Below, in pieces: positions 12,747 through 47,926 of a stretch of 64,000 nucleotides of DNA. The translations under genes and the position numbers were made by a program. The first letter of the stretch is position 1, and every line of letters starts with the position of its first letter. A model generated the notes under the pieces. The model was not told the DNA's origin, did not search any database, and saw only the letters and a list, made by a program, of their open reading frames with translations. Source of the DNA: Scilla litardierei (lineage: Eukaryota > Streptophyta > Magnoliopsida > Asparagales > Asparagaceae); assembly GCA_030789695.1 (NCBI GenBank), contig CM061141.1:172312807-172376806 (forward strand), in the 5' to 3' direction.

Positions 12747-13077
12747 ACAATCAAGCGAGTAGAAATTATAGGGTAAAAAGTAAACTTTAGCAGTGGAGCG
12801 AAGTTACCCAGCAGAGGTTGGAGCTCCTTGCTTGAAATTGACCCCAATACCGTGCAATCGGACGGAGTGTGGAGCCGCGGCACTTCTCTTCAGCGAAAAA
12901 TCCGAAAATGGGGGGATTAGGGAGAAAGCGAAATGGTAGAGAGGGAGAGAGGGAAAACGATGGAGAGATGGAAGGGGTAGGTGTATAGAGAGGCTAGAGG
13001 GGGAGTGGAAGTCGTGGGAGAGGTTTTTCAGCCGTTGGGAAGTCGGGGGAGATGAAACGACGGCGAAAATGGCGAGA
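12747..13077 (-). other. Spacer upstream of the Athila-type ORF
   Basis: G/A-rich on the plus strand between the palindrome array and the ORF start. The only reading frames are short and overlap the ORF antiparallel or out of frame. It could hold the leader of a spliced 3' transcript, but I see no firm signal. Confidence 0.4.
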
Positions 13078-14033: not shown

Positions 14034-14948
14034 TCATTCTTCTTCGGGCCGACTGGTTCTTCTGAGGTCCCCCAAGCTATCGGGGGGATTTCTCGAGAGA
14101 ATTTCCCAGGAGCTTGCCTCTACAGCTCTCTCTTCTTCTAGCTCCAGCACATTGATACTAGGATCATCCGGAGGATCGGGGTGCTTAATCGACAACCCCA
14201 AGTCAAATTCGACTTTTTCTTGGCCGACGTTGAGGGAAAGCTTCCCATTCTTCACGTCTATTAGTACATCTGCGGTTGCCATAAAGGGCCGTCCAAGGAT
14301 AATAGGGGTGTGCTTGTCTTCCGGCATGTCCATCACCATAAAATCCACCGGTACTTGTACTCCACTCACATCAACGGGGAGGTCGTCTACTACTCCCACC
14401 GGGTATTTCACCGAACGGTCAGCAAATTGTAATGTCATGCCGGTGGGCTCCAAGTCTCCCATCCCTATTCTCCTGTATAGCGATAGGGGCATTAAGCTGA
14501 CGCTCGCTCTTAGATCGATGAGCGCCCTCTGGATTCGCACTTCCCCAATAGAACAAGGGATGGAGAAACTTCCTGGGTCTTTGAGTTTGGGCGGATTTGC
14601 GCGCTGAATGAGGGCGCTGCACTCCGCCGTTAATACGACCTTCTCCTTTCTGGATCCTCTTGTCACCAAGTCCTTTAGAAATTTGGCGTAGGAGGGAATC
14701 GTCTCGATGGCTTCGAGGAAGGGGATTTGTAAGCTCAGATCTTTCACCATGGCAAAGAATTTGCCATACTTCTCATCTATCTTGGCTTGTGCAAGCCGTT
14801 GTGGAAAAGGCACAACTGGCTTGAACACTCTGAGGTTCCCTTCCTCATCCTTTTTCTTCTCCTCTCCATGGACTCCCTCCGGAGTAGTTGGCTTTGGCGA
14901 CGAAGCACCGTCGTCATTTAATTTTTCAATTGGTCGTTCCACGACCAA
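14034..14948 (-). pseudogene. Gypsy aspartic protease domain
   Basis: A 304-codon frame encoding the retropepsin of the Athila-like element. The N-terminal half contains FPQRLAQAKIDEKYGKFFAMVKDLSLQIPFLEAI and SIPCSIGEVRIQRALIDL. The active-site block reads LIDLRASVSLMPLSLY, where the family has D-L-G-A-S-V; the Gly after the catalytic Asp-Leu is Arg, which should disable the enzyme. The flap-side segment and VDFMVMDMPEDK...IILGRPFMATADVLIDV are conserved. Beyond it the frame runs to an acidic tail ending SRPEEE. It would cleave Gag in particles. It follows the Gln-rich linker of Gag in the usual order. Confidence 0.85.
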
Positions 14949-15511
14949 CGGTGCTTCCGGTCCTTTGGGGGGGGCACTCTTGTGGGGATTTGCATTCCGC
15001 TCCTCAAGACGATGGCGGACACGTTCTCATGCTCATGCATGAGCGCCAAGGTCCGATTTACCCCCCTCGGGTTCACTTCAGGCTGTGGCGGTAATATATT
15101 CTGCGGCCTCTGAAGGTTCGCCACTTGTAACCCCAGCTGGGTCACCTGATCAGTGAGAACTCTTTGTCCCATCTCCAGCTTCAGATTTATCTTCTCCTGG
15201 TTGGCGATGTATTGAGTCAAGAGGGACTCAACCGGAGAGATGGCCCTCTGCTGGCCATATTGTTGCTGGATGGGCTGTTGATTCCTTGGAGCATACTGCT
15301 GATATTATTGTGGATGTTGTTGCTGCTGAAATTGCTGCTGGGGCCAAGCCGGCTGATATATTTGTTGTTGTTGCTGCTGAGTCGGCTGTTGATATGGCGC
15401 CCGGTAGCTAAGGTTGGGATGATTCCGGTTGTTAGGAGAGTAGGCCGGGTTGGAGCTAGTCCGTGGCGGAAACGGCACATTTCCAGTAGGATTGTAGAAC
15501 AGTGCGATCGC
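14918..15511 (-). pseudogene. Gln-rich linker between Gag and protease
   Basis: On the minus strand, one frame gives a run of Gln-rich sequence (15270-15400, CAG/CAA codons), then LTQYIANQEKINLKLEMGQ and VTQLGLQVANLQRPQN, ending near 14918 where the protease frame overlaps. It resembles the linker of Athila/Tat-group gag-pol proteins. At least one stop and frameshifts interrupt it. The ORF read here in another phase (Asn/Ser-rich) is an artefact of the CAG-type repeats. Confidence 0.6.
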
Positions 15512-16485
15512 TTAGTCCAATGGTGGTGAGATGTCACCACCGTCGAATTCCCCCATGACTTCTGTTTCCACCGCGGCAATATGTTGCGCACCGGCACCAC
15601 CGGCTCCTACCATCAATGCGGAGATCTGGGTCGACAGCAAGTCAAACTTGCTGGATAATTTGTCGACATCCTCGACCCTGTGGATGCCCCCAGATCTAGA
15701 TGTGGCTCTCTCGTCACACCACCGCTCATTGTTGGATGCCATATTTTCAAGAATGTTCCCGGCATCTTCTTCACTTCTTGACATAAAGGACCCTTCAGCC
15801 GCGGCGTCCATGGAAGATTTCAAATCGTCCCTCAACCCATTATAGAACAGATTTATAATCTTCCATTGGGGAGCTCATGGTGGGGACATCTCTGCTGCAT
15901 CTCCTTGTATCTGGTCCAGGCTTCGTGCAGAGACTCGTGGCTGGCCTGGGAGAAGGAGGAGATCTCACTCCTCAGCTTCATGGTCTTCTCCGAAGGAAAG
16001 AACTTTGTCAGGAAAGCATTTGAGAGCTTCTCCCAGGTGTTGAATGTATTCGGGTCCTTCCCCCTAAGCCACAGCTTGGCCTTATCCCGCAGAGAGAAGG
16101 GGAATAGCTTCAGTCGGATCGCCTCAGTTGTGAAACAGTTTATCCGGAAGGTGTCACATTTCTCCAAGAAGGAGTCCAAATGTTCAATGGGGCTCTCCAT
16201 GGGTGCACCCGAAAATTGATCCTGCTAGATCCACGTCACCAAAGACGGCTTAAGCTCAAAGCTTTGCACTGTAATAGCTAGAGGATGGATGGCGGAGGTG
16301 GACTCGATGGAAGGCATCGAGTACTCCAGCAGGGACTTGTGAGGTGGGGTGTTCTCCCCCATGGTTTCAGGATCCTCTCTGCTTCGCTTCTCGACGGCCA
16401 AACGCCTTAGGGTGGCGTTTATCTCTGGATAAACGGGGATCAAGTCGTCGAGACTTTTTGAACTCCTGTGCATGAAAAACAACAA
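15512..16485 (-). pseudogene. Gypsy gag (Retrotrans_gag), interrupted
   Basis: The capsid protein of the Athila-like element. MESPIEHLDSFLEKCDTF (from 16200), IRLKLFPFSLRDKAKLWL, NTFNTWEKLSNAFLTKFFP and SQASHESLHEAWTRYKEM are the classic Retrotrans_gag blocks. Upstream codons to 16485 are in the same frame, broken by a TAG at 16225-16227 where relatives have a Gln-rich run before the GSPMESP-like block. After HHELPNGRL a stop falls at 15853, and the frame picks up at 15835 with the EDAGNILENMASNN segment. No zinc knuckle is visible. The start at 16485 (MLFFMHRSS) is the first Met, about 160 bases inside the primer site; the true start is uncertain. Confidence 0.85.
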
Positions 16486-16642
16486 ACACCCTGAAGCGAA
16501 AAGTGGGAAAGAAACAGATAAAATAAAAAATAAAAAAATAAGAAAATAAAAAGAAAAAAGAAGAATGCAAAAATTATCGCGAGGTATGGATGAGAGCTAG
16601 ACACAAGGGTTCATGAAATCCTAAAATAACAAGCATGTTGCC

Positions 16643-16660
16643 TCCCCGGCAACGGCGCCA
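16643..16660 (-). other. Primer binding site complementary to tRNA-Asp
   Basis: The plus strand reads TCCCCGGCAACGGCGCCA, which is the 3' end of plant tRNA-Asp(GUC) including CCA; its complement is the 18-nt primer site, seven bases from the LTR. Athila and related gypsy elements use this tRNA. Confidence 0.92.
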
Positions 16661-16667
16661 TAAAGCT

Positions 16668-18258
16668 TGACGTCCCCCGCTTTGTGCATGTTTGATGTGT
16701 TCAATAATATGATCAGAGGCGTGAGATTTAAATATTTGTAACCGCAAGCGCACGGTGTTGTAGTGTGGCTTGGGGGTCGAACTCAGGGAGGCGTGGATGT
16801 GCTTGTGTCAAGAAGGATCAAATTCACCCCATGGGCGAGCTAGCCCGAATCGGATGATGGGTTGTCACGAAAAATAGAATGCAAGGGATAAACAATATAA
16901 AGGAAAAACCCGGGACTTTGGTTTCCACCCTATCATGCGATTCTCGCCGATACGGCCTACGGGTAGGATAGCGATCGGAATTAGGGTCTAATGGTGAGGC
17001 GTTGCCTCTGAAAGTGGTACCAGCGTCCCATGGGCCCGATATTCCGGTCGGTGCCCAGGATGATACGCCGGACTTCCCGGGTTCGGTCAGTGGGCACTCC
17101 CGTGTCCATTAACACTGACCAACTCCGGGAGCACTAAGCTCGCAACGATAACTCCCAACGTCTCATCCTGCCGCTCCCGCGCGCTAGGATTCGATGTCTA
17201 CACTAAGGGCGTGAGCTATGGCTAGGGAGTCAACCGCCAAGTTTATTCCCCCTTGGCCCAACGGTCAAAGGCGGTTTTTTTCCTGCCGATGACAATAAAA
17301 CACCCCGCGTAACCGTTAGATTCCTAACCCCTATCGATTTCCTGTCCTATGGACGCATCGGGGAGAGCCCACGAAGGGGTTTCCACCAAAATCCCAGATT
17401 TGGGAACTACTCACACATATTTAGTAAAAAGCGATCTAAAGCAAAATCGACCGTAAAAATCATGATCAGGCGATTGAAAAGCAGTAAGAGAAATGCTAAT
17501 AACACTATATTAAAGTTTGACAAAGATCGGAAAACTTACAAATATCTAAAAAATTACAGCCGTCAAGAGAGAGAAAAAACAGCAAAAAATAACAACACCC
17601 GTTTCTGGAAAACCTATGGGTCATATATATAGAATACAATATCACCCGATTGGGTGAAAAGTCACCCGATCGGGTGACCTGCTTCGTTTCTTCGGCAGCT
17701 CAGAATAGGACTTCACCCGGTCACCACGGCATGGTCGGTTGAGGGTTGAAGCTGATCGGTTGGATCTTCTTGCCGTCGGGTGAACCGGTCGGTTGATCTC
17801 TCTGTGTCATGGCTTTGGAGAACCGGCTACAGGTGAACCGATCGGGTGAAAGTCACCCGATCGGTTGGCATTCAGCATCAGAATTCCAGAGAGTTGGGGC
17901 GTTTGAACCGGTCTCTGAACCGACCGGGTGACTTCTTGGTCGCTCCAACTTGTGTCTGGGTGGTGCACGCCTGCATCACCCGATCGGTTGGAAATGACCA
18001 ACCGGTCGGGTGAGGGGCTGAAAGATGCAATCTTCGTCGTTTGACCCTTGGATCACGCGTGACTCCTCCCGTTACTCCGGGGACTCATGATATCGTCGTT
18101 TTATGTCCCCTATGCCAGGAAACTCCTGCAAAATACGAAAAACACGTAAAAGTGTAAGAAAACAAGAAAACACGAGAAAACAAATATAAGACGGCAGTAA
18201 ATAACGGAAAAACACAGAAGAAAACATGCGTGAATATATGAAATATAAACGCACGTCA
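16668..18258 (-). repeat. Athila-like element LTR (5' LTR on minus strand, 1591 bp)
   Basis: Starts TGACGTCCCCCGC and ends AACGCACGTCA on the plus strand, matching 7559-9148. On the minus strand it is the promoter-bearing 5' LTR next to the tRNA-Asp primer site. The palindrome cluster is at 17641-18012. Confidence 0.94.
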
Positions 18259-21607: not shown

Positions 21608-21608
<1 letters not shown>

Positions 21609-21636
21609 TAGTCATAACCCGTGCCCGCGGGCACGG
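21608..21636 (-). other. Helitron 3' terminus: hairpin and CTAG
   Basis: On the minus strand: CCGTGCCCGCGGGCACGG (a perfect palindrome, 21619-21636), then GTTATGA, then CTAG at 21608-21611, then host T. The hairpin 7 nt before CTRR acts as the rolling-circle terminator in Helitrons. Confidence 0.93.
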
Positions 21637-23270
21637 TTCATTCTAGATTTTCCCCCGTGAAATCTTTATTCTCCAAAAAATTATTTCCACAACCAAATTC
21701 GGCGTTGAACAACAAATTTGGCACAGGCGCCTTCGACGCGGAATAACAAAGTAGCATAAAAAAATTTCGCGGGCATCTTCGGCGCGGGTGCAAATAACTT
21801 ATATATTACCCCTAGGGCACAGTTCATATAAGATATTACCCCATCAATAGCTTAGTTCCACCGTAAATTTTACTCATCCCAGAAAATCTAGTTCCTCCCA
21901 AATAACTTAGTTTCCACTAAAATTTAATACCTCAAAATTTAGTTATTCAACCCTTAAAATCGTGGATCCCCTAATTTTAAATAAACAACAATAATGAAAG
22001 CACAATATATGGACGTACCCATCGATTCTGCTCTACATATGCTAGAAGAGATCGCTACTAATGGCCTCAGATGATATGGCGGAGCCATGATTCTGGGTCA
22101 CTGATTGAAGTCGTACCTCACTGCAATCGAAAGAAGAGTTTTGTAGGACACAGACCGCCACAGACCGACCCATCTGTCTCGACGTAAGTACACGTAGTAG
22201 AACACGTACCCACATGACCCTTGTGTCTTGAATGTAACTGTTGAGCGACGCTCGAAAGTGTGTGACGATGGGTCATCTAGCCTAGGCACGTAGACCTATA
22301 GTCCATTATTAATAATCAATCATCCAATTAGTTTAGATACAGAGCCTACCTCCAAAAAATTTAATTCTAGACATGACATCGAAATAGACTTAGTTCATCC
22401 ATTTTGTTATCACACATATCAATCTATCCAGACAACTGAATGGTTGGTATTACCTATATCAATCTATCAAACCCCCCATTTCCCTCATTATGTTGAATTT
22501 ATTCACACTTGTATAAAGCAACAATCAGTTCGATCTCTTTTTAACATCATATAATGATCGCATATTGCTACTATTCATTAATCAATATTCGTGCTTTTAA
22601 ACTGTATAAATCTCTTTTTGTGGCTGTCTCAGGTGATAATGTTCTTATGTCTCGAGACAATGTCAAGGCTGCTTGGTTACCCTTGATTCTTTATAAACTT
22701 ATTCGGGTTTCTCCCCTAAAATAGCGACATCCTTATAAGGAACTAATTTTATAAAAATTTGCAAACCAGTTTGTGAATCAAAGTCCAGTTATTAGGAGAA
22801 TAATGAGTGATAAACATATGAGTTCATAATAGATAAAAAATTGAACTATGGGGGAAATTTTGTTCGCCTGAATAAAAACCCAATATAACAGAATGGCTCC
22901 AAATATTCATTACTTCTCATTAAAAGATTTTTTTCAATCATTACATCAAAAAAAAACCATACAATTAAATGCTAGCTGCTACCCTTCACATAAAAGAAAA
23001 TCAAAACAAAAGTTAAAAAGGAAAAAAAAGATTAAACCCCAACTCCAGCTGCTAATTGCAAGCCACATTCTAGCTTGCACCCTCTAATCCAAAAGAGAAG
23101 GATACATGGTGCTCGCCTTTCACCTAGTGAAAAAAGCACTGCATAAAAGGACACAACATACAGAAGGTGGATACATCTAATTAATTGTAATGAGGCAAAT
23201 AATGCTCCATCCCAACTTTCACATTCTCGCAAAAGTCTAAAATCAGCTGATTCTGTTTGAGTGCGGTGTT
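21637..23270 (-). other. Helitron 3' region without recognisable gene
   Basis: Mostly noncoding, with C/T-rich stretches. A 63-codon minus-strand frame at 22098-22289 (MPRLDDPSSHTFERRSTVTF...) is open but I do not recognise it. A plus-strand stretch at about 22615-22720 gives a short open run ending at a stop. Neither is convincing as a gene. Confidence 0.5.
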
Positions 23271-23370
23271 CTAGTTTTCATGGCCCAATGAAGATGGCAC
23301 TGATGAAAGGAGAGCAACCATGTAGAAAACATCCTCATCTGGAAGTACAACGAACGTTTTGTTATCCCAC
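23271..23370 (-). pseudogene. Captured terminal exon, gene unidentified
   Basis: Minus strand: a splice acceptor (TTAATGCAG, ending 23371) opens a frame WDNKTFVVLPDEDVFYMV, then ALLSSVPSSLGHEN and a TAG stop near 23271. It has the look of a last coding exon: acceptor, open frame with acidic and hydrophobic alternation, stop. I do not recognise the family. As the fragment nearest the Helitron 3' end it would supply the C-terminus of any chimeric product. Confidence 0.45.
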
Positions 23371-25061
23371 CTGCATTAAGAAACATAACTAAGAAACATA
23401 ACATTTAAATGTTCATAAATTTGGAGAGTACTATATCATGAATGCAATAATGATGCGGCATTGTCTCTGCTAAAATGAGAATATATTTTCCATAAGCTTT
23501 CTTGTCTTAGAATTTAAAGACATTATGAATCTGAGTTAATTAGAGTAACTATTTTCCACTACTTTCAACGAAGCAGAAGATGCAAGAAATCGAAAGGTAT
23601 CGTATATGCATATGCATATAATGTGACATATAACATAATAGCATACATATATGGCAGGTTGACTTGTTAAATATTGATCATAGAGATAAAATAATAGCAT
23701 ACATATAATTAAAATATGACATATAACATATAAAAGTGTCTAAGTTGAACTCTGAACTCATTTACAGAATAAAAAGGGTCAAGGAATAAACAGAAAAGGA
23801 CTCAAATATAAAAAGAGGATAGAAAGTATGAAAGGAAGGAAGGATCCAACTAAAGTAAAGAGCTTGATATATTTCAATATTTCTCTTCTATGTAAATTGT
23901 GTCTTAAAACAGAGTTTCATTTCAAAAAAAACCTAAAATAGGATGTAGTTTGTCATTCAGTAACAAAAGTCTATGGTAATAATTTACAAACAAACAAATA
24001 TGACCTGATCTAAGCAGTGTATTGCTACATGTTGGGAAACTAACTATGAAGTGTTTATGGAACCTTATCATGATGTAGAGTGCCATATTATTCCCACTAT
24101 AGTTGGCCCAAGAAACAGAAGATCATGAAATAGCATGTGAATGGTATAACTGAACAAAACAACCTGGACTCATGCTGATAAAGCCATAGATAAATTTCTC
24201 TATAATTTCTTTTGTTTTGCCTAGGGCAGAGATATTTAGTTCCATGGAAAGTTGCATCTAAGCATTGCAAGATTCTAACCCTTCATTTTCATTGCAAGTC
24301 ATCACCTTTCTGATGAACACCATGTGGCTTATGCACATATGCATATCTGACTCATGTATACACATTGGGACTACATTCATATATGAAAGAACTAATGTTT
24401 TTAGTAAAATGTTCTATAAAACAATAGTTTTTGTCAAGTGAGGGCAGAACATAGTTCATATGGTGCATATTTTTTACCTGAATAACAATGTGTATATTTG
24501 TTAAGTGTCAGACATGGTTGGACATGTGTGTCATCTCCGGATGTGTTGGACTCTGTAAATTTCGGTTGGAAGAAATGTCCTACATATCATAGTTGATGTT
24601 AATATGAGTTATTCTCCCTTTTGACAAATGCAAATAGTTGGATCATTTTATTTTTTCGGTACTGCTATAAAAAAAACCAATTGAATACACTTCTATGAAT
24701 CAAAAACATATCCATGTAGTAAAAACATGCATATATAACTGTCCTTTTGTCTAGGATTTGTTGCTGTGTGTATGATACCTCATGGTTGTGTCAGAATATG
24801 ACACTTGTTGATTATTGTTAAAGTCCTGGTTATATTAACTTAACTCATGATATCACCATTAAGAAAAGTGGTTATATGAAATTCAGGAACAAATATGTAT
24901 TGAGTGTTGTACATGCATATTGCTGCCGAACTTTATTTTGATATTATACTTACATTTATCCAAACTCAAATATAATCACACTCTTAAGACGATGTAATTA
25001 TAATCTACTACTGGACATTCTCAGAACTGGCGTAGGGCGAGAAAAACTTACAGTGCAATAC
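23371..25061 (-). other. AT-rich intron-like sequence in the Helitron
   Basis: About 1.7 kb with no frame or motif I recognise on either strand. Long runs of A/T and repeated catatat/gcatat words. Probably intron or intergenic DNA captured with the exons on either side. Confidence 0.55.
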
Positions 25062-25275
25062 CTGAATGATGTCACTTGCCTACCATCCATATTAACATGA
25101 TATCCTTCCATGCCCACACTCAATATCTTGTCTTCGACAAATGGATATGGCCCGTCAAAAGTAACCTTATTTGTTCTGCCAATTAACCGGTTCAACCACC
25201 AAGCCGTCTGAGATTCCTCCAAATGATCATCATCATCATCTCGGATCCACTTCTCACACTTCACTTGCCCATCAA
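25062..25275 (-). pseudogene. Captured exon of hydroxyproline O-galactosyltransferase (GALT, galectin domain)
   Basis: Minus strand, bounded by a good acceptor (TTGTCTTCACAG before 25275) and a donor (CAG/GTATTG at 25062). It encodes [46 protein letters not shown] and [16 protein letters not shown], the distinctive galectin-like part of plant Golgi GALT enzymes that add galactose to hydroxyproline of arabinogalactan proteins. Relatives have extra residues between the PYPF block and the GLEGYH block, so a few codons are deleted. The catalytic GT31 domain is absent. The frame itself is open. Same strand as the Helitron. Confidence 0.85.
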
Positions 25276-25934
25276 CTGTGAAGACAATTTGCCACGAAAA
25301 AATTTCAGCTTTGGCACTAAATTAAACTTAAAAAACTGGATGTAGCCTTGATTCATTATGAAACATTCAGATTTCAGATCACACTCATAAAAGGACAGGA
25401 ACTTAACGGTAAATTAGATTATTTCAATCTTGCCCATGACTGAAAATTAGATTATTATTTTTTTCTTTCCCCATCAAACAACTGAAATGGATAAACAGAA
25501 AAAGCCTCTAACATCAACTTAGGACTATCCTCCTACTAACCAAAATTTGATGTCTAATAAGAACCGTGATTAGATCAGTAGAAAAAAGAGTACTTTTATC
25601 ACTATGGATACATGACAGTTTTAATGCATTCATCTACACGGCAAAAAAACATGGATACATGACAGTTAAATGCATATAGATGAGCCACTGTCAAAAGCTA
25701 AAGAGAAAGTGTGATAATGTTCATCATGTTTCTTAAATTCTGTAACTTGTGTCCATGTTTTATGCGTCATGTTCATAACTGTCACAAACTACTCTTTATG
25801 TCAAAAGAAAACTGTCATCCAAATACAAAAAACTTTTTAGAGGGGAAGCGTCGACTTTCGACATTTTCATCTCAACATGCCAAAATAAATTAGGAATAAC
25901 CTTATTATAAGTTTGTATAACATTGTTGCTTTGC

Positions 25935-26010
25935 CAATCAGGCCCAGCTCAGGTGGTGAAGGTTTTAAGAGTGGATAGTGGGAAGTCCTCAGTTCAGGCC
26001 TTCGTACAAA
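25935..26010 (+). repeat. Possible tRNA-derived SINE head
   Basis: AGGCCCAGCTCAGGTGGTGAAGG resembles an A box (TRGCNNAGTGG class), and CAGTTCAGGCC about 45 bases on resembles a B box (GGTTCRANNC). The spacing fits a tRNA-like RNA polymerase III promoter. No flanking duplication was established. Confidence 0.35.
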
Positions 26011-26182
26011 AATTATAATATATTGCTTCTGACATATTGCTTTAAATTCATCAGCATTAGTGATGAGATCTTGGCACTGGGACTTCATATTTTACCCATG
26101 CACTGTTAACTGTTGGAAGTTTCCAAAAAAAATAAAGGAATAATATTTGAAGAGTAATGGAAAGAAAGGTAAACCATCAAAT

Positions 26183-26240
26183 GAGCTTGGCTAATGCGGT
26201 ACACCGCTTCATTTCAATGCAGGTGGATATGGTTCAATTC
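26183..26240 (+). repeat. Second possible tRNA-derived SINE head
   Basis: TGGCTAATGCGG (A box-like) and GGTTCAATTCT (nine of eleven matches to the B box GGTTCGANTCC) are about 35 bases apart, as in tRNA-like promoters. A T-run follows. Unrelated in sequence to the one at 25935. Confidence 0.4.
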
Positions 26241-27964
26241 TCCTTTTTTATAGTAGGCAATGCACAAAAATAGTTTGTTTATTTTTAAAATAATGAAACA
26301 GGATCCATTTTGCCATTCACAATACAGTAGGTGATATATCTTCATGCAGAATTTTCTGTCAAAAGAGTAACATGAGAAAAATCATAAAAAAGGTAAATAC
26401 ATGTAAATTAACCTGATATAGCTTCAGCAATTATCAGACATTAAGTCAATATGGAAAAAGAAATGATCCAACTAAGTATTTACTGCATAATCCATTTCCA
26501 ATTGATATCTCTTATATCCAAGCAGTATCCATTTCCAATTTTATTAAATATGGATGTGACTTTTTATTTCCAGACCATATCCATATCCATTATTGAAATG
26601 GGTACGTTAAATATCACTTTTGACCTAAATCAACCGTTAAACCTGAGGTGTTAACATATCTAAATCCAATCCTAAATCAGGTTCAAATGGAAGCCTACTT
26701 ATAAAATCTGTCATATCTGAATGCTTATGCCAGCACATTGTAGACATCTTTGAGAGAGATCATATTTGGAGAGAAAGGGAGAGAGATGAAAAGCAAGAGA
26801 GTTCCAGTTCCAGTGCCCTTGAGCTTTTATATATGCAGGGCTGCTTGAAGGGTAAGATGTGAGGGCAGTAGCAACAGAATGAACTAAATATCAAGTTGTG
26901 AGGAGTGTTTACCATTTTACTAAATATTACTGCAGTTTGTGTTTTATCACATAAATTACTGAAGTATGCAGAAGAAATAGAGTCACCGTTACCAATAAGA
27001 TTAAGGTATTAAGGTAGAGCAAAATGCATCACGATCAATTTTTAAAAATATAGATTTGGCAAAAGAGACGCCGGTAATAAAGCCAAATTCATCTTTCATG
27101 CAGAAGCCTAAAAGACTTGGGAAAAGTTTACTACATTGAGTAGTCAAATGGCAAATGATTGTATCAGGAGAAAGCTGAATATTTCTTTGCAAATTTCATA
27201 ATGTTGTAAGCTACAAAAGAAATATGTGAAAAAAAGATATGGTTGTTACTCAGTTTTATACAGGACATCGTATTAAAAGGTGTTGCCCTTCAAAGTCCAT
27301 AGAATGGTAGAAATATCAAATTTCAATTGTCAAAAAATCATAAAGTTCGATCAAAAAAATCAAAAAAGAAAGATTGTTTGTTTACTCAAAATTTCTCAAA
27401 ATTTCCTCAAATTTTCCTCAAAATTTTTTAGGGCTGGGACATATGAATCTTGGAACTCAAAATTAATTCTCGGATTTCAAATCCAGTACAACATGAGCTC
27501 TCAATTTATTATGATAATATCCAAGACTAAAAAGAAAATGTGTTCAGTTAGGGAAGGGACTGCATGCCTCGAAATATGTTTATCTTGAAACATCTCAGGG
27601 TTTAGGAAAATCATGAATATGAGAATATATGTAGATATCTTCTTAAACTTGCAGGTGACTCAAACCTGTCAGCTATATCAAATAAATAGTTGCAAATACT
27701 GAATATGAGAACATATGCATATATCAACTATATCAAATAAATAGCTAATTCTGGAAGAAGCTGTTCCCTATGATTGCTATATACTGAAAGAAGCAATCTA
27801 TAGATTGTAATCCTAAGTATATACTAACAGGTTGATATATGCAGATAGCAAGCTGTTACCTATGATTGCTACATATCATAATAAACATATGCATATATTA
27901 ACTATATCAAATAAACAGGTTGATATATGCAGTTATCTTCTTTTGTGTACCCCTCATCTTTACC

Positions 27965-28165
27965 TTCTATAGATTGCTTTCTTCACAACTTGGTGACTTC
28001 CCTATGCTTGCTTCCTTCACCTTCACGATTGATTGTTTCACCTTTGAAAATATATTGCCTTGGGAGTACTTGGTGGAAACCTTAGCTTTAGGAGCTTCGC
28101 CTACATCTTTTGCCTACTCAACCAGAGTTTTCTTTGAATTTGAGCCAAAAGAAGCATCAAAGAGT
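27965..28165 (-). pseudogene. Possible captured exon, unidentified, Lys/Ser-rich
   Basis: The minus strand gives an open stretch with KDVGEAPKAKVSTKYSQ, then IFSKVKQSIVKVKEAS and IGKSPSCEESNL before a stop. The Lys-rich, amphipathic composition looks protein-like and the strand agrees with the other captured exons, but I cannot name a family and the plus strand is also open here. Listed only as a candidate. Confidence 0.3.
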
Positions 28166-28524
28166 GTACATGAACAAAAGAAGCATCAAGTGAATTAGCA
28201 AAATAAGAGAAATGGTTGACCTGAGGTTTCCCTAAATTGACTTGAGCAATTGATTTGCCTGGTACAGTATTTTTGTGAAGTTATTCATCACTAAAAGTTT
28301 AAAACCAATGAACTGGAGTAGTATAATTCCAATTACCTGGTGCTTCAAGTAGCCTTTGATCTTGTTTGACTATCTCAAGAAGCTGGCACTTCTTCAGAGC
28401 CTGAATGTTACATTAAGTCAGTTGACATCCATAAGCACACCAATAGAAAACCAAAATTAATTTCAGGTTTACCTCCCAGATTTCGGAATCTGAATGTAGT
28501 TCTAGAGTATCCAAGTTTGTTAAA

Positions 28525-28692
28525 AAGCCATATGCTCTGAGGAGCGAGAACATGTAGACGACACCTATCCATTTGCTCACGCTGTTCACTGCATTGGCAT
28601 TGATCTGCTCAAGAACCCTCGTCAGGACCAACACCAGATTCACGTTGACCCCAAAGAATCCTAGCGTCGCCAAGCCTTGGTTCACTGGATTT
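28525..28692 (-). pseudogene. Captured exon of an NPF (NRT1/PTR family) transporter
   Basis: The minus strand encodes NQGLATLGFFGVNVNLVLVL, TRVLEQINANAVNSVSKW and IGVVYMFSLLRAYGF. This is the first-to-second transmembrane region of plant NPF nitrate/peptide transporters, which normally reads QGLATLAFFGVGVNLVLFLTRV then WTGTVYIFSLLGAF. One or two hydrophobic membrane segments are recognisable. The remaining ten or so segments are absent. The frame is open across the fragment and continues for some distance on both sides into intron-like sequence. Same strand as the Helitron. Confidence 0.85.
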
Positions 28693-29610
28693 TTGCAGGG
28701 CCACAACTCGTCAGAATGCAACACACCTATACATATGCAAATGTATACGCACACATATTCCTTGAAACTGACAGGATACATATCAAAATGACAAACTTTG
28801 CTGAGTTAGATATGGGATCACAATTCCAACTTTGCAGACAAAATTTCTATACTCACATATAAATATCAAAATCCTAAACTTCAAACAAATAAAAATGAAC
28901 AATCATAGCTCAAATCAAAATATGTAGAAGTTTGAAATTTAAGGATGCAAGTCATATTATCATCAAAAATTGCATAACTCACCGTTTTGAGTTTCTTTTC
29001 CTCCAGACCGATTGTACATGCATCTGGATGAACATCACACGTATCAGCTGGAAATTCCAAAACTTTTTGATCACATCCATTCCAAAAAGCTATCATGCGT
29101 ATATTCAAAACCTGAACATTCAATAATTCTCTATATCCTAAACTCATCCAGCTTGTTCTTTCGTAATAATAGAAAATAGGTGACTTGCTCATCACCAACA
29201 GCATTCCCATACATGAAACAAAAAGGCTATTGTTCTAATCCCGTATTTATTAAATATTTATTTCTCAAGCCTTACATATGATCCAGCCTTGCAAATAGCA
29301 TTAGATTTACAGAAAAGATCCGAAGAGCAAGCATGACATGATGTCGTTGCTCTGAGATTTGAGCACATAATCTATGTGCAGAAAAAAGCACACTGTTTAA
29401 GTTAGAAGAGCATTTGATATACAACTTGGGTTCTGTGTTCTAAACGGGGAAAGTGGTGGGTTAAATTTAAGTTAAAATGAATAGACCATAACAAATTTCA
29501 AGTCTGAACTAAAACGATAGTTAACTATTCCTCAAAAAAGATAAAAAAGAATAAAACATTACCCAATCAGAAAAACATCAAACTTGAGGAATGATTTCAA
29601 CTTCTTCGTT
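28693..29610 (-). other. Helitron interior between NPF and CPS fragments
   Basis: A 109-codon minus-strand frame at 28881-29210 reads through FWNGCDQKVLEFPADTCDV and TIGLEEKKLKTVSYAIF. It is open but I do not recognise it and do not claim it as a gene. The rest is AT-rich. Confidence 0.45.
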
Positions 29611-29926
29611 TCAAAGGTTGCAAACAGGATGGTTTCCTCCAAGATGCCCAAACTTCATTTTAAATGTCTTACAACCCAAAGCTTGCTTGAGCAACTGGTG
29701 ACCCATGCACATTCCAACATGGACCTTGCCAAATATAACATTACCGTATGGACGACATACGGGACGTGACAGTGTCTCTAGGGCCAGTGCTAAAAAGAAC
29801 ACCATCAGGTTTCATCTTCACTGTTTCTCCAACAGGCCATGTTGATGGCACAACTGTGATTTTACATCCATAAGATAACAAACGCCTTAAAATATTATGT
29901 TTGATCACAAAATCATATGCAACATC
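29611..29926 (-). pseudogene. Captured exon of carbamoyl-phosphate synthase small chain (glutaminase)
   Basis: Minus strand, opened by an acceptor (CTGTTGCAG ending at 29927). It encodes [51 protein letters not shown], then after two frameshifts [16 protein letters not shown] and [18 protein letters not shown], ending at a TGA (29611). This is the class I glutamine amidotransferase part of the plastid enzyme, which supplies ammonia for arginine and pyrimidine synthesis; the nucleophile Cys in CMGHQ is kept. The family reads GPGDP where this has GPRDT. The later catalytic His/Glu part is absent. Confidence 0.9.
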
Positions 29927-31175
29927 CTGCAACAGAAGGGGGAACACATACATAAATGGAATATTAATCTAGAAGCTTATCAAGTATAGAGATCCAAATT
30001 ACTGACTGAAATGTTCTGCCATGATTGTGACCATTGCTAAATTTACATTTTGAATCTGTTGCCACAGAGCATTCATTAGTTGATTCAAGGAATGGCAAAG
30101 ATCAACTATAGATCAACAGACAACATAACCTTGTCAATATTCAAGGAATGGCACAGAAATTGAACAGAATCCCTAGTTGATTCCTTTTGTCCCATATATA
30201 GATTGTTAGTCTATGATTGGAAAGGGTCGCAAAATCTGAGCAAATATCCCTTATGTCCCATATATAGATTTCTAAGAAGAATAGGATAACATACCTAATT
30301 CAGCGGTGAGGTGGAAGGATAGATAATCACCCACTCTACACATAGCTCCCAATGCTAAACTGTGATTGGATCAGCGATTGCAACTGATAGAACTGTCATG
30401 ATACTTCCCCCAGAATGGCACATACAAAGTTGAAGCCGAAATCTAAACCATATTTTGCCACCAACTGCACATGATAAAAGTATGTACTGCATAAGTAACC
30501 GGGGGGATTAGCATTGATAATCTAGAATATTACAATTCAATCAAGTATAGATCAGAAACGCAGAAGCCAAAATTAAACATGAATTACGGCGTCAACTATG
30601 CACCACTTAATCTCAGTATGAGAACAATATATTAGGCGCAAATCTAAAGCCGAAATGCAAAGTATAGGCTTTCACTTTGATGCCAAGACAGAATCAGATA
30701 ATTTAATACTATAATAAAGCATGTGACTATGGAAGTTGCACTTGTACTGGAGTTTTTCACTCAGTCGGAGGGATAACAAACAAATTAGTGCAAGACCCCA
30801 TTATATATAAACGTAAGTAAAGCAGTTTGAAAAAGTTGGACTAAAAAGAAAATGTCATATAAATAAACAAACAAAAGTGTAGAAATATAATTATGGAAAT
30901 TTTAGAAAAGAATAGGCATCAAATATGAAGGTAGAATAGCCCAGAACACCGACACATCTTCATCTTCATCTTCATTTTTACTTTTTCCTTTTCTGAATGC
31001 AAATTTTCTTTTGAATCATTCTTTTTCACTGCACCAACATAAAAAATCTTTTTCCCCTTCTACTCGCCTTTATTTTTATTACTACTATTATTTTTCAACA
31101 CCGTGATATTTCATATCCTCATCTTTTGCTATAATTCCTGTACAACTTCGCATATTTGTTTATCTTTCATCTTAC
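29927..31175 (-). other. AT-rich intron-like Helitron sequence
   Basis: No motif or family recognised over about 1.25 kb. The phrase CCCATATATAGATT is present twice (near 30190 and 30258), suggesting a small internal duplication. Confidence 0.5.
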
Positions 31176-31267
31176 CTTCCTAGGAAACATGATAGCATGG
31201 CAGGGTGGGAAGCTGCGACCACAGTCGGATCTTCATGTTCTGTACCTCCAAGATACACAATGTGCAC
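31176..31267 (-). pseudogene. Captured exon of a subtilisin-like protease (prodomain)
   Basis: A 92-bp minus-strand exon with both splice sites visible: acceptor AAGCAG before 31267 and donor AAG/GTAAGA at 31176. It encodes VHIVYLGGTEHEDPTVVAAS then HPAMLSCFLG, the start of the inhibitor I9 prodomain in plant subtilases, which typically reads VHIVYLGE..HDDPELVTASHHEMLSSLLGS. The exon border after LG(S) is also typical. The catalytic Asp/His/Ser parts are not present. The frame is open. Such proteases act in the apoplast; here only the prodomain piece survives. Confidence 0.85.
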
Positions 31268-32499
31268 CTGCTTGTGGGAAAAAAAATCCTGGTAAGAAAC
31301 AATCAGGCAGATGATAGAAAGGACAAATGCCGAGGGGACGACTCACATTACTGGCTTGTATAATAAGTTTGGAGCTGCAAATCAAAAGGCAGGCATAAAG
31401 AATGAGAGATATAACATGCATTCTCTTCAATTCACCCATAATGAAGGAACTAAGCAGTGGGACAGAGGAAATGATTCTTTGAAGATATGTAAAATGCCAG
31501 TGAAAATATAGCTTCTTCTTTCTAATCCCTGAAATTTTTTCAGTGACCCAGAAATAAATAAATTGTGTCCTCTTTAATTATGTTGCTTTATTGGTGAATG
31601 GATGGAAATAAAGTCTTGAAGCTCCATACTGCTAAAAACTTCTGTTATTGCAACACATTTAATTTCATTCTTTTTCTTCCCTCTCTTCATTCATTTAATT
31701 TCATTCAGTTTAAAAATTAACCTAGAGCTGCAAACTCAAAGCAACAAATGCTAAACGTGAATAAGATTCAGCTTCACAACATGTTCAATAAGTAGTTAAA
31801 CATATCCAAAGTTCAATACACATATTAACAAATACCAAAAGTTCAATCAAATCCTAATTCAATTCATGTGTAAGTTTCAATCAAATTCTCTCTACAGTTA
31901 ATGCATCCAATTTTCATTGCTACCTTTCCATCATGTATAAATATGGATGGCATTTTGTGATTAATAAGAATATATGAAAATGGATGTGTAACATAAATTA
32001 GAATGTTTGATGTGAAAAAGAAACATAAGAGTTAAGCAAGGTTGCTTGCATTATTACCCAAGATGCCGATAGTTTATACTTTAAATTGGAAGAGCCAAAG
32101 TCCAAATTGAAGATGCACACCAATTGATGTGATCTACTGTCCAAAATTTCCAAGGGTTTCACGGTGTATTATCCATGAATCAAGTGGCCACCAATGGAAT
32201 GCTTCAAAAGAATGTAAATTTGTTTAATTTGTGAGTGTCGGTGCATGATTAGAACACCAGAAAACCTTTGAAATTTTGTGCCTAATAGTAGAAAAATTGA
32301 ACAATGATGTTCCAATTCAAAGTAGAAACAGTTTGAAATTTTGTGAGTGTCGGTGCATGATCAGTACAAACAGTTTGAGTCTCCAAATTGAACAATGATG
32401 TTCCAATTCAAAGTAGAAAAATGCACATCATGGATACATCCAAATGTAGCCTACCTTAACGTTGAACATGTATGTTTCATAAATAGACATTTAAAATAC
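31268..32499 (-). other. AT-rich intron-like Helitron sequence
   Basis: About 1.2 kb with no gene recognised. A 25-base phrase (gttccaattcaaagtagaaa and neighbours) occurs twice near 32310 and 32400, with TTTTGTGAGTGTCGGTGCATGAT at 32230 and 32343, a local duplication of about 110 bp. Confidence 0.5.
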
Positions 32500-32699
32500 C
32501 TGAACGACAAAGTTCCGCCTTTCTCAATCCATAAACATGTCGGGTGCCCAGTTTGTCTTATCGCTTATTTTGTCCCTCACAGTGTTGTAACTCAGTTGAT
32601 CCCTGGAAGTAAAGCGATCAACTTCATTGAACCAGATACATGTGAAAAGGTTGGTAAGGGGAGTGAGCTCTTTGATGATCACAAAGCCTTCAGGCACAT
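32500..32699 (-). pseudogene. Captured exon of a DUF616 (MUCI70/TOD1-like) protein
   Basis: A 200-bp minus-strand exon with acceptor CTGTTCTGTAG (before 32699) and donor CAG/GTATTT (at 32500). It encodes VPEGFVIIKELTPLTNLF, TCIWFNEVDRFTSRDQLSY, NTVRDKISDKTNWAPDMFMD, a TGA stop, then ERRNFVVQ. This is highly like plant DUF616 proteins, which normally have a Cys codon (MFLDCERRN) where the TGA stands, so a single TGC/TGT-to-TGA change breaks it. The family is Golgi-associated and includes MUCI70 and TOD1. The plus-strand frame at 32395-32724 is a shadow of it. Confidence 0.85.
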
Positions 32700-33184
32700 C
32701 TACAGAACAGCAGAAAGAAGATGAATTAATTTAGGACATGAAATGCATGTAAAATCCAATATTAATTTAAATATTTTCAGACAGAAAAAATTGAGGAAAC
32801 TGAGAATTCCCTTTAAAAAGAAAGAAAAAAGTTGAGCAAAAAGACACATGTGTTTGAATTAGATTGAAGCAAGAAAACCAAAATAAATGTTTTTGAAAAC
32901 CTCAATATGAGTTCTAACTTCCGCTTCTTGTTTTCATTTTCAATTCTTCTTTTCTGTTCACCCAAAGAAGGATCGATTCCAATTCAAGAAAATCGGCATG
33001 ACAAATATAAAAGTGCAAATTTTAACATATGCCCGGCTATTCTAGCTAACATGAGTGGGATCCCCTGATGAAAAATCCAATGATATGTTATTAGGCATGC
33101 ATTTCTTTTATCAAAGCAAAAAAAATTCTCTAAGAAGAAGTCAATTGTTTCAATCATATGCAAACTCTCAAGAGTTAGGAATTC
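32700..33184 (-). other. AT-rich intron-like Helitron sequence
   Basis: Nothing recognised on either strand. A/G-rich near 32800-32900. Confidence 0.5.
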
Positions 33185-33480
33185 AGTTTTGAATCGGTTG
33201 TTGCTTCATCAATGACAAATATTCTGCTCATCATCAAGAATGCTCTTCCAAGGCAAAAAAGCTCTCTACCCAACACTCCAGTTTCCTCCATTTTCAACGA
33301 CTGTAAGAAATTCCACATCAATAAATGGACTAAATCCTTCTTCTAGTTCAAAGCCTTTATCAAGGTGAATACATATAGTGCTCTGACAAAGGGTGGTCAG
33401 CATGTCTTACCCATCGAATCTAGCTTATTATCACTTATGCGGCTCATTTCACCAAGTTGACATTTATCTAGAACCTGGAT
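33185..33480 (-). pseudogene. Captured two-exon fragment of an ABCC (MRP-type) transporter
   Basis: Minus strand. Exon A (33411-33480) encodes LDKCQLGEMSRISDNKLDSM; a 110-bp intron follows (33301-33410) with GTAAGA donor and TTCTTACAG acceptor; exon B (33185-33300) encodes VVENGGNWSVG then, one frame over, RELFCLGRAFLMMSRIFVIDEAT. Splicing places LDSM directly before VVENG, as in plant ABCC second nucleotide-binding domains. The signature region normally reads NWSVGQRQLFCLGR, so the Gln after Gly is lost (stop/frameshift at TAG). The Walker B-like FVIDEAT is recognisable. The intron shows that genomic DNA, not cDNA, was captured. Confidence 0.88.
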
Positions 33481-33959
33481 ATTGTAAAATGTTTGTAAAG
33501 CTTGTTATAATGAGATCCTAAAAATAAATTTGGTATAATGAGATAGTTGCCTAAAGTTGGATGTTAATGCATTTGCTAAGATAGAACTGATAAATATTTA
33601 AATACTGTCCAAATCGTTACGCTGAATATAGGTCTTAACTGTTTTGCAATTCAAGTGAACCTGTTATGCCTTTGATTTTTCCTTATAGGGCTTAACCAAA
33701 ACCCGAGCTCCACAGTAAATTGGATTCCTATTCTACAGAATCATATTAACAGTCTCCGCATACACAAAGCTCACAAACCCAAACATCCTCTTCTACTGCA
33801 AAGGGATCCTCTCATTGCGAACATGCCCATAAAAAGTAAGCTCAAGATGTGGGGGAAATGAGGGTACTCACTCTATGTGTTTGTTATTCCAGAGGATTGA
33901 GTAAGAGTGGAAATCTGCAGAGTGATAAAACCAAAACTGCAGAAAGTTGCTAGAATTGT
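33481..33959 (-). other. AT-rich Helitron sequence between ABCC and PWI fragments
   Basis: No motif or frame that I recognise. Confidence 0.5.
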
Positions 33960-34312
33960 ATCCAAAAATTGTTGAGGAACTCCTCCTCTTTGTTCTGTGC
34001 GCTGAGCAGTAGACCCCATAGCTCCTTCATGAACTTCCCAGTGTTCTTCTCCATGAATCCAGTAAGCTGGATCTGAATTTGTTTCACATCCAATTAAAAC
34101 ATGAATTTGATGAAATCAAGTATGACAATATTTAAAAAATAGTACCTTTCCATCCAAAAATTAGCACTTCATCCTCAAATCCGAGGAGCTCGGTCGCCCT
34201 ACGATCCACGGCCTGATCACGTCCATCTTCACCTTCTGCGACTTGAGGAGATGATCGAGCTCCGATGCGAACTTCTGCGGCTTGAGGAGCTTCGCGCATC
34301 TGCGAGAGGAGG
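33960..34312 (-). pseudogene. Captured PWI-domain fragment of an SRRM1-like splicing factor
   Basis: Minus strand, two exons. Exon A (34146-34312) encodes CAKLLKPQKFASELDHLL, VKMDVIRPWI and, after a frameshift, ATELLGFEDEVLIF, with donor AAG/GTACTA. Exon B (from 34072, acceptor ACAAATTCAG) encodes IQLTGFMEKNTGKFMKELWG and LLLSAQNKEEEFLNN. Together these are the PWI nucleic-acid-binding domain of SRRM1-type splicing coactivators (PWI itself is visible in RPWI). A few codons are missing after EDEVLI, where relatives read NFIYGLLE. It lies closest to the Helitron 5' end, so its source promoter or 5'UTR may have come with it. Nuclear mRNA-splicing role in the parent. Confidence 0.88.
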
Positions 34313-34487
34313 ACGTTGGCCAAAGGGGGTGGGGTTGCCAGCGTGCCCTAGTCGCGATCCACGGCCTGTTCTTTTTTATTTTCCCAAAATGAGGGTTTCC
34401 CCCTTAAATTTGGAAACATTTCGGTTTCTCTCATTGGGTTTCAAACTAAAATTCAAATTTTTCCCCCCAAATTTCAAAATTACAACT

Positions 34488-34722
34488 TAAACTCTTATCC
34501 AATTTCTCATATCCAATATCTCTTATCCAATAACTCATATAACATCCCTTATTTTTATACCCTAAATACAACTCAACCCTTTATCTAATTTCTCTTATCC
34601 AATTTCTCTTATCCATATCTCATTATAACATCCCTCATTTATATACCCCCAAATACAATTCAAACCCTTATCCAATTTCTCTTATCAAAAACTCTTATCC
34701 AAAAACCCATGATAACATCCCT
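34488..34722 (-). repeat. Subterminal tandem repeats near the Helitron 5' end
   Basis: Three imperfect copies, roughly 90-115 bp apart, of a block containing CTTATCCAATTTCTCTTATCC, then AACATCCCT..TTTATACCC and AAATACAA.TCAA.CCCTT. Short subterminal repeats are common in plant Helitrons. No coding content. Confidence 0.7.
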
Positions 34723-34737
34723 GTTTTATAGAATAGA
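34719..34737 (-). other. Helitron 5' terminus
   Basis: Minus strand TCTATTCTATAAAACAGGG, preceded by host A (34738) inside TATATA. Starting TC and AT-rich, with the TCTAT...ATAAAA word typical of plant Helitron 5' ends. Confidence 0.85.
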
Positions 34738-38630: not shown

Positions 38631-41600
38631 ATGACAAGATTTTTATAGCCTAATTTTTGTCTTCTCTTATTTTTCAGTTGAAGATGGCGATCTCTATGTT
38701 CCAACGGACATTTTTACGGATTTTACTTAGCTTTGGGCTTTTTTCTACATAGAAATGATATGAATCTTTTTATGAAATGATATGTTTTTTGGCCTAATTT
38801 TGTCTTCTCTTTTTTCAGTTGAATATTGCGATCTCCCAGTTCCAACGGACATTTATGCAGATTTTTCTGAGCTCAGTGCTATTTTCTACATTTTTGGTCG
38901 ATATGTATCTTTTCATTAAATGGTATGTTTTTGTCCTAATTTTGTCTTCTTTTATTTTTCAGCTGCAGATGGCGATCTCTCGGTTCCAACGGACATTTTT
39001 CGGATTTTTCTGAGCTCCGAGCTATTTTCTACATTTTTTGTATGATACGAATCCTTATATTAAATGATATAATTTTTATAACCTAATTTTTTCTTCTCTT
39101 ATTATTCAGTTGAAGATGGAGATCCCATAGTTCCAACAAACATTTTTGCGGATTTTTCTGAGCTCAGGGCTACTTTCTACATTTTTGAAAAGTTTTGTAT
39201 CTTAATATTAAATGATATGATTTTATAGCATAAGTTTGTATTCTCTTATTTTTTTAGTTGAAGATGGCAATCTCCCGATTCCAAAAGGACATTTTGCGTA
39301 TTTTTTGAGCTCAGTGCTATTTTCTACATTTTATGAAAGATATAGAACTTTTAATTAAATAATATGATTTATGTAGCTTACGTTTGTCTTCTCTTATTTT
39401 TTTTTCAATTAAAGATGGCGATCACCCAGTTCCAACAGACATTTTTGCAGATTTGTTTTAGCTTGAGACTAATTTTCTATATTTTCTGGAAGATACGTAT
39501 CTTTTTAAGCAATGATATGATTTTTTGGCCTAATTTTGTCTTCTCTTTTTTCCTTTGAAGATGGCGATCTCCCGGATCCAATGGACATTTGTGCGGATTT
39601 ATTTTGAACTAGGGATATTTTCTATATTTTTTGTATAATATGATTCTTTTTATTAAATGATATGATTTTTATAACCTAATTTTATCATATCTTATTTTTC
39701 AGTTGAAGATGTCGATCTCCATGTTCCAAGGGACATTTTGCGGGTTTTTCTGAGCTCGGGGCTATTTTTCTACATTTTCGAGAAGTTATGGATGTTTTTA
39801 TTAAATGATATGACTTTTTGGCCTCATTTTGTTTTCTTCTATTTTTTAGTTGAAGGTAGCGATCTCCTGTTTCTACCGGACATTTTACCTATTATTCTGA
39901 CATCGGGATTATTTTCTAAATTTTCTGGAAGATATGGATCTTTTATTAAATGATAAGATTTTTGGCCCAATTTCGTCTTCTCTTATTTTTTAGTTGAAGA
40001 TGGTGATCTTCCTGTTCCAACAGACATTTTTGCAGATTTTTATAAGCTCGGTGCTATTTAATACTTTTTATAAATGATAGGATTTTTATAGACTACGTTT
40101 GTCTTCTCTTATTTTCTTCAGTTGAAGATGGCGATCTCTCGGTTCCAATGGATATTTTTGCAGATTTTTCTTAACTTGAGGCTATTTTTGTACATTCTCT
40201 TGAAGATATGGATCTTTTTATGAAATGATGTGATTTTTAGCCTAATTTTTGTCTGCTCTAGACGAAGATGATGATCTCTCGGTTCTAACGAACATTTTTT
40301 ACGGATTTTTTGAGCTCCATGATATTTTCTACATTTTCTATAAGATATGAATCTTTATATTAAATGATACGATTTTTATTGCCTGATTTTGTCTTCTCTT
40401 ATTTTTTCAGTTGAAGGTGGCGACCATGGTTCCAATGAACATTTTTGCGGATTCTTTTGAGCTCGGTGATTTTTTCTAAAATTTATGGAAGATAAAGAAC
40501 TTTTTATTAAATGGTATTATTTTTATAGCCTATATTTGTCTTCTCTTATTTTTTTTAGTTGAAGATGGAGATCTCTCGGTTCCAACGAAAATTTGGATTT
40601 TTCTGAGCTCCAAACTATTTTCTACTTATTTTGGAAGATATAGATCTTTATATTAAATGATATGATTTTTATGGTCTAATTTTTTATTCTCTTATTTTTC
40701 AGTTGAATATGGCGTTCTATCGGTTCCAACAGACATTTTTTGCGTTTTATTCTGATCTCGGGGCTATTTTCTAAATTTTCTGGAATATAAGTATCATTTT
40801 ATTAAAGATATAATTTTTGGCCTAATTTTATCTTTTCTTATTTTTCAGTTGAAAATGACGATCTCCCTGTTCCAACAGACTTTTTTGTGGATTTTTATGA
40901 GCTCGGTGGTATTTTCTATATTTTATGAAAGATAAGGATCTTTTTAGTAAATGATTGATTTTCTATTTTCTATATTTTCTATATTTTTACGATCTCCCGG
41001 TTCCAACAGATTTTTTTGTGGATTGCTATATTCTAATTTTTCAGTTGAAAATGGCGATCTACCTGTTTCTACAGAAATTTTTACGGATTTTTCTTTGTTT
41101 GGGATTATTTTTCTTCCTCTCCTGGAAGATATGGATATTTTTATTAAATGATATGATTTTTGGCCCAATTTTGTCTTCTCTTTTTTCCAGTTGAAGATGG
41201 CGATCTCCCGGTTCCAATTTACATTTATGCGGATTTTTTTGAGCTCCGGCCTATTTTTTACATTTTCTATAAGATATGGATCTTTATATTAAAGGAAATG
41301 ATTTTTATAAACTAATTTTTTCTTCTCTTATTTTTTTCAGTAGAAGATGGCGTTCTCCCGGTTTCATTGGACATTTTGGCGGATTTTTCTGAGCTCGAGT
41401 CTATTTTTCTACATTTTGGGAAGTTATGGATCTTTTTATTAAATGATATAATTTTTTTGCCATAGTTTGTCTTCTCTTATTTTTAAGTTGAAGATGGCAA
41501 TCTCCCGATTCCATCAAACATGCGGATTATTCTTACCTCGGGCTATTTTCTAAATTTTCTGGAAGATATGGATCTTTTATTAAATGATTTAATATTTTTT

Positions 41601-46930: not shown

Positions 46931-46932
46931 AG

Positions 46933-47923: not shown

Positions 47924-47926
47924 TTC

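What the first reader, a model, noticed from the sequence alone, without database searches (positions are those of the whole stretch)
21608..34737. Helitron carrying exons of at least seven unrelated plant genes, all in sense orientation
Seen: minus-strand coding matches to PWI/SRRM1 (33960-34312), ABCC transporter (33185-33480), DUF616 (32500-32699), subtilase prodomain (31176-31267), CPS small chain (29611-29926), NPF transporter (28525-28692) and GALT galectin domain (25062-25275), plus an unidentified terminal exon (23271-23370). All share the Helitron's own strand. Known: plant Helitrons capture gene pieces, with sense bias. Inference: one element accumulated at least eight captures, which is a lot for a single element and unreported for this locus as far as I can tell.
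Basis: partly seen in the sequence, partly recalled or inferred. Interest (0 to 1): 0.88.

Follow-up and report, generated by a model that had tools for sequence, protein, structure and literature searches.

The report
Young mosaic Helitron carrying many exons
A 13-kilobase plant rolling-circle transposon, present as four almost identical copies in its genome, carries exon pieces of at least eight unrelated genes on one strand and was likely put together from multi-gene blocks traded among related transposons, which makes it a clear example of a known way in which plants shuffle genes.

Summary
Window 21608-34737 (minus strand) is a canonical Helitron of 13,130 bp: 5' TC, 3' hairpin plus CTAG, inserted between A and T. 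Four full-length copies lie on four chromosome-sized contigs with unrelated flanks and differ by 2-5 bases, so both ends belong to one recently mobile element. Exon pieces of eight unrelated genes are supported at E<0.001, all on the Helitron strand; two more (NPF weak, subtilase by reading only) make ten.
The element is a mosaic: at four internal junctions clearly, and a fifth less clearly, each side occurs elsewhere without the other. One related Helitron shares only the first 4.6 kb, another element only the last 5.8 kb. It was probably assembled by fusing multi-gene blocks, not by eight separate captures in one lineage. In 4 of 14 related loci another Helitron's 3' end, broken at the apex of its terminator hairpin, is fused on. 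The count lies inside the published maize range (0-12). Parent genes and an autonomous helper were not located.

The parts
21608..34737 (-). whole Helitron, 13,130 bp, 5' end at 34737
   Evidence: four copies of identical length, pairwise 2-5 differences, flanked by different DNA
34708..34737 (-). 5' terminus beginning TC
   Evidence: shared by all four copies, each preceded by an A of the target
34481..34730 (-). 86-bp subterminal minisatellite, 2.9 copies
   Evidence: Tandem Repeats Finder
21608..21636 (-). 3' terminus: perfect 9-bp hairpin (21619-21636), 7 bases, CTAG (21608-21611)
   Evidence: only structure found by the scan of the 64-kb window; shared by all four copies
33986..34096 (-). 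PWI domain exon (SRRM1-like); the reading extends to about 34312
   Evidence: Pfam PF01480 E 2.9e-11; PDB 1mp1 E 0.0017; reading
33655..33825 (-).
   Evidence: 259 proteins at E<=1 among 260 candidates; 75% identity to Musa/Ensete proteins, E 4.5e-15
33185..33480 (-). ABCC transporter nucleotide-binding domain, two exons, frameshifted
   Evidence: PDB ABCC13 E 4.7e-4, two colinear pieces
32497..32778 (-). TOD1/MUCI70 (DUF616) glycosyltransferase exon, one in-frame stop
   Evidence: Pfam PF04765 E 2.7e-25; reading
31176..31267 (-). probable subtilase prodomain exon
   Evidence: reading of the translation only; no database support
29599..29920 (-). carbamoyl-phosphate synthase small chain exon(s), frameshifted
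   Evidence: Pfam GATase in two frames; PDB E 7.8e-9 and 4.4e-8
28524..28664 (-). NPF transporter exon (weak statistical support)
   Evidence: PDB NRT1.1 E 0.011
25062..25275 (-). GALT6 galectin-domain exon, open, with AG before and GT after
   Evidence: 456 proteins at E<=0.001 among 464 candidates, best 9.1e-31; splice sites read
   Evidence: Pfam PF09265 E 8.2e-14; PDB cytokinin oxidase 2 E 8.7e-16
22104..22301 (-).
   Evidence: Pfam PF06232 E 3.8e-6 and 1.9e-8
32727..32729 (-). block junction E2009/2011
   Evidence: 4 other loci end at E2009 (a fifth in two pieces), 6 others start at E2011
30079..30110 (-). block junction E4628-4659 with about 30 bp of filler
   Evidence: C8 element and others stop at E4626-4628; other loci start at E4659; filler repeats 15 bp from E4585
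28250..28252 (-). block junction E6486/6488
   Evidence: 6 other loci end at E6488, 6 others start at E6486
27369..27373 (-). block junction E7365-7369
   Evidence: 4 other loci start at E7365 (one read); 3 others end at E7369
26959..26961 (-). less certain block junction E7777/7779
   Evidence: 2 loci end at E7779, 1 starts at E7777; one of the two (C4) also has a 44-bp match further right, E8277-8320
21608..23610 (-). widespread 3' block (E11128-13130) with cytokinin dehydrogenase and ATS3 pieces
   Evidence: left edge at E11128/11129 in 11 of 26 relatives L013-L038

Best explanation
This is a 13,130-bp Helitron in which no transposase gene was found, present as four near-identical copies on four chromosome-sized contigs, carrying exon pieces of at least eight unrelated genes in sense orientation, and it was likely assembled by fusing multi-gene blocks from other Helitrons rather than by one capture at a time. 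Shown: the ends, the copies, the A|T insertion points, the gene pieces, and four clear internal junctions (a fifth less clear) whose two sides occur apart elsewhere. Shown by reading two relatives: an element on C8 shares E3-4627 and then continues with other cargo (a snurportin-1 piece) to a different 3' end (its own 5' end reads TA where this one reads TC), and an element on C5 shares E7365-13130 with the same 3' end. Inferred: the gene pieces were first captured long ago from host genes; blocks were later joined when one Helitron lost its 3' terminator, or was broken and repaired with filler DNA, next to or within another, so that rolling-circle replication ran on to the next intact terminator; the final composite was then copied by a transposase supplied in trans, within roughly the last ten thousand years if a grass-like mutation rate (recalled, 1.3e-8 per site per year) applies. 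Several exons carry stops and frameshifts, so the composite is not predicted to make an ordinary protein.
For: Four copies, 13,130 bp each, pairwise 2-5 differences, different flanks, each between A and T. The 3' end matches over the full 710-bp query at 21 places, the four copies included (40 of 4570 candidates scored); the 5' end gave 78 matches (40 of 2703 scored). Internal block structure with two-sided junctions. C8 and C5 relatives read directly. Ten loci share E798-1719 at 98-99%, 9 of them also listed with the 5' end. A Helitron 3' end cut at its hairpin apex lies directly at the junction in 4 of 14 loci examined, 2 junction types. Read-through after hairpin loss is shown by experiment for Helraiser (PMC4778049, passages). 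Cargo matches on the minus strand only.
Against: No hairpin remnant was found inside this element, so the read-through route is seen only in relatives, and 10 of the 14 loci examined there show none. The filler at E4628-4659 is only mildly unusual (4% of random places in the element do as well). Most donor loci were seen as match coordinates, not as sequence, so that they are Helitrons is inferred for all but the few that were read. Only 40 candidates per large search were scored, so a missing partner block may be unscored or lie beyond the query; the C4 locus at E7777/7779 shows such a further piece. Some one-sided matches could be deletion derivatives of a once longer element. No 5' end was found for the C5 element in 9.4 kb upstream (one pattern and BLAST).
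Confidence: 0.72

Rival explanations
1. Stepwise capture in one lineage: one Helitron picked up the host gene pieces one after another during successive transpositions, as proposed for maize.
For: Relatives share nested portions from the 5' end (to E782, E896, E1719, E4627) and from the 3' end (from E11128, from E7365). Dong et al. 2011 (passages) describe this for maize.
Against: At four junctions clearly the right-hand block was found elsewhere without the left-hand one, and the reverse, and several blocks already hold two or more gene pieces.
Confidence: 0.2
2. Deletion products: a longer ancestor held everything, and the partial relatives lost pieces.
For: Many relatives share only one side of a junction; Dong et al. 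2011 report internal loss.
Against: The C8 element has different cargo and a different 3' end after E4627, and the C5 element has 9.4 kb of sequence without a match to this element before E7365.
Confidence: 0.1
3. Segmental duplication, or two Helitrons whose ends were paired by mistake.
For: None found.
Against: Four copies with identical ends and unrelated flanks.
Confidence: 0.01

Closest known systems
Gene-fragment-carrying Helitrons of maize (helA type; Dong et al. 2011, PMC3288121, passages)
   Same: CTAG 3' ends, several host gene fragments per element, relatives sharing parts of the cargo, elements with extra 3' termini
   Different: Here four near-identical 13-kb copies date the composite as very young, and the cargo resolves into blocks whose two sides are found apart; 9-10 pieces lie inside the published 0-12 range
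Helraiser/Helibat (PMC4778049, passages)
   Same: 3' hairpin acts as terminator; loss of it gives read-through into flanking DNA; TC/CTAG ends and AT targets
   Different: Helraiser is an autonomous bat element; here, in relatives, the terminator is cut at the hairpin apex and joined to the interior of another Helitron
Xuan-Feng Helitrons of wheat (PMC13286980, abstract and section list only)
   Same: plant Helitron family with recent movement and a separate autonomous driver
   Different: activity there is experimental; here it is inferred from copy identity and no driver was found
Pack-MULEs and Pack-CACTAs (recalled)
   Same: DNA transposons that carry gene pieces
   Different: terminal inverted repeats and target duplications, which were not found here

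Membership tests
Helitron | 5' TC and 3' CTRR ends | tested here: met
   TC...CTAG in 4 of 4 copies
Helitron | GC-rich hairpin a few bases before the 3' end | tested here: met
   perfect 9-bp stem, 7 bases before CTAG
Helitron | insertion between A and T without target duplication | tested here: met
   4 of 4 copies: A before TC, T after CTAG; TA-rich sites make a short duplication hard to exclude, and no empty site was compared
Helitron | no terminal inverted repeats | tested here: met
   the inverted pairs shown across the ends are the flanking TA runs (25 longest of 103 pairs shown)
Helitron (autonomous) | Rep/helicase protein | tested here: not met
   no such Pfam match in six frames of this copy, so non-autonomous; the genome-wide search for PF14214 did not complete
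Pack-MULE / CACTA | terminal inverted repeats and target site duplication | tested here: not met
Segmental duplication | copies share flanking DNA | tested here: not met
   the 120-bp flanks of the four copies differ apart from TA runs

The most novel reading that the evidence does not exclude
In this plant the cargo of Helitrons is a common pool of multi-gene blocks that are exchanged between elements like cassettes, and the exchange runs through destruction of the 3' terminator: replication or repair breaks the hairpin at its apex and joins it inside a neighbouring Helitron, disabling one terminator and adopting the next. The window element is the newest, still mobile product.
Probability: 0.3. 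Interest if true: 0.68.

Novelty: new member of a known kind. Interest (0 to 1): 0.45.

Why it matters
How a single Helitron comes to hold pieces of many unlinked genes is an old question. This genome offers a young composite with four near-identical copies plus relatives holding its separate blocks, so the order of fusion could be read rather than guessed, and junctions at the apex of the terminator hairpin give a concrete, testable route. A family that moved this recently may also have a working autonomous partner.

Tried and rejected
Rejected: two unrelated termini and segmental duplication. Looked for and not found: hairpin remnants inside the window element. Not upheld: a hairpin-apex junction at E11128; the left sequences of L016 and L033 gave no match to a Helitron 3' end. 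Subtilase: no support from PDB, Pfam or the protein search. Host species: I considered Victoria because one of its proteins ranked second, but the exon is only 75% identical and other hits are scattered; host left unnamed. Parent genes: CPS-like DNA has 34 matches, the four copies included, and GALT-like DNA several at 71-81%; C12:9917162-9917444 (81%, about the exon) is a candidate parent, untested. Two exon-like stretches (28354-28420 and 27933-28142) gave no family above cut-off. Papers opened but not leaned on: PMC13317346 and PMC2773423 (passages).
Full report
Check of the observation. The element runs from 34737 (5' end, TC) to 21608 (3' end, CTAG) on the minus strand. A search of the window's own genome (3.68 Gb, 7,266 contigs, unnamed) with the first 738 bp and the last 710 bp found three further places where both ends match at 100% as rounded by the tool. 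Read in full, all four copies are 13,130 bp and differ pairwise by 2, 4, 5, 2, 3 and 5 bases. Their flanks are unrelated except for TA runs; each insertion is between A and T. The C2 copy sits inside a tandem array of Helitron 5'-end-like units. With a recalled rate of 1.3e-8 per site per year, the mean of 3.5 differences per 13,130 bp gives about ten thousand years; the host is unknown, so this is only an order of magnitude.

Cargo. Minus-strand frames, read with stops as X, match Pfam PWI, TOD1/MUCI70, GATase (CPS small chain, two frames), Cytokin-bind and ATS3; the plus strand gives one row at E 0.51. PDB sequence searches add ABCC (E 4.7e-4) and, weakly, NPF (E 0.011) and agree for CPS and cytokinin dehydrogenase. 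A protein search identifies GALT6 (456 proteins at E<=0.001 among 464 candidates), and another shows an extra exon of a CCCH zinc-finger/RRM protein. The subtilase piece rests on reading alone. So eight genes are supported at E<0.001, one is weak and one unconfirmed. Stops or frameshifts occur in the ABCC, MUCI70, CPS, cytokinin dehydrogenase and CCCH pieces; the GALT6 and NPF pieces read open. All ten lie on the Helitron strand.

Mosaic structure. In element coordinates (E = 34738 minus window position), an element on C8 shares E3-4627 at 96% and then differs, carrying a snurportin-1 piece and a different 3' end. An element on C5 shares E7365-13130 (94% and 97% pieces), interrupted by a CACTA-like element with an AGG duplication; a second C5 locus shares E7365-11178 without that interruption, plus the same 3' end. 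DNA searches with three internal stretches gave sharp breakpoints (40 candidates scored in each, of 237, 135 and 650). At E2009/2011, E4628/4659, E6486/6488 and E7365-7369 the left and the right side each occur at other places where the partner was not seen. At E7777/7779 the case is weaker: two loci end there and one starts there, but one of the two also has a 44-bp match further right. Ten loci share E798-1719 at 98-99% and stop there; nine of them are also listed with the 5' end. At the 3' side the left edge E11128/11129 is the commonest (11 of 26 relatives), with others at E11187, E11350, E11669, E11689 and E11911.

How the joins may form. At two of the 3'-side junction types the sequence directly to the left is the 3' end of another Helitron, cut at the apex of its terminator hairpin: L024, L026 and L028 (join at E11187) and L027 (join at E11689), 4 of 14 loci examined (best matches E 7e-11 and 4e-34). 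The first hairpin arm is kept; the second arm and CTAG are gone. The other 10 loci showed no such remnant. An element with such a join has lost one terminator and would end at the next. For Helraiser, loss of the hairpin leads to read-through (PMC4778049, passages). The window element itself shows no internal hairpin remnant; its junction at E4628-4659 has about 30 bp of filler, 15 bp of which repeat sequence 56 bp upstream (4% of random positions do as well). I therefore hold block fusion as likely, and the exact joining reaction as open: terminator break with read-through, or end joining with filler.

Known or new. Maize helA elements carry 0-12 gene fragments, mean 3, with stepwise gain and multiple termini (PMC3288121, passages). 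An active Helitron family in wheat is in print (PMC13286980, abstract and section list). In the listings of my searches for mosaic or chimeric Helitrons and for truncated hairpins (titles and abstract openings only) no paper announced hairpin-apex junctions, but that library lacks most subscription journals. The finding is a new member of a known kind with an unusually readable history.

Limits. The sense bias of captured pieces in plant Helitrons is recalled, not checked here.

Noticed in passing
window 38641-43536 and 44050-57574: Satellite arrays with a period of about 146 bp; the unit is in one orientation in the first block and reverse-complemented in the second, with copia-type gag, integrase and reverse transcriptase ORFs at 46913-49953 between parts of the second.
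   Followed up: no
window 59551-61224: Separate tandem array of a 338-bp unit, 4.9 copies.
   Followed up: no
window 1402-37704: The Helitron lies between two 2.1-kb LTRs (95.4% alike); the same stretch also holds an ATHILA-type element at 7559-18258 (LTRs 96% alike, GTGAG duplication). No clear target duplication was seen for the outer LTR pair.
   Followed up: partly
G000:C13:529792858-529825149 (L045-L048): Two related Helitron-ended stretches about 16 kb long, 99.5% identical, lie in inverted orientation with their 3' ends facing each other and contain several internal Helitron-end matches.
   Followed up: partly
L043 1-2037 (C2): The C2 copy is inserted in an array with 18 matches to a Helitron 5'-end motif just upstream, mostly 77 bp or multiples apart.
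   Followed up: no
L055 2123 to L056 1682 (C5): CACTA-like element of about 7.6 kb inserted in the related C5 element with an AGG target duplication.
   Followed up: partly
L049 6561-7093 (C8): Snurportin-1 m3G-cap-binding exon pieces (two frames, one at E 7.9e-18, one just under cut-off) carried by the related C8 element.
   Followed up: no
window 27933-28142 and 28354-28420: Two exon-like stretches on the Helitron strand between the NPF piece and the next block, unidentified; the first has one in-frame stop.
   Followed up: partly
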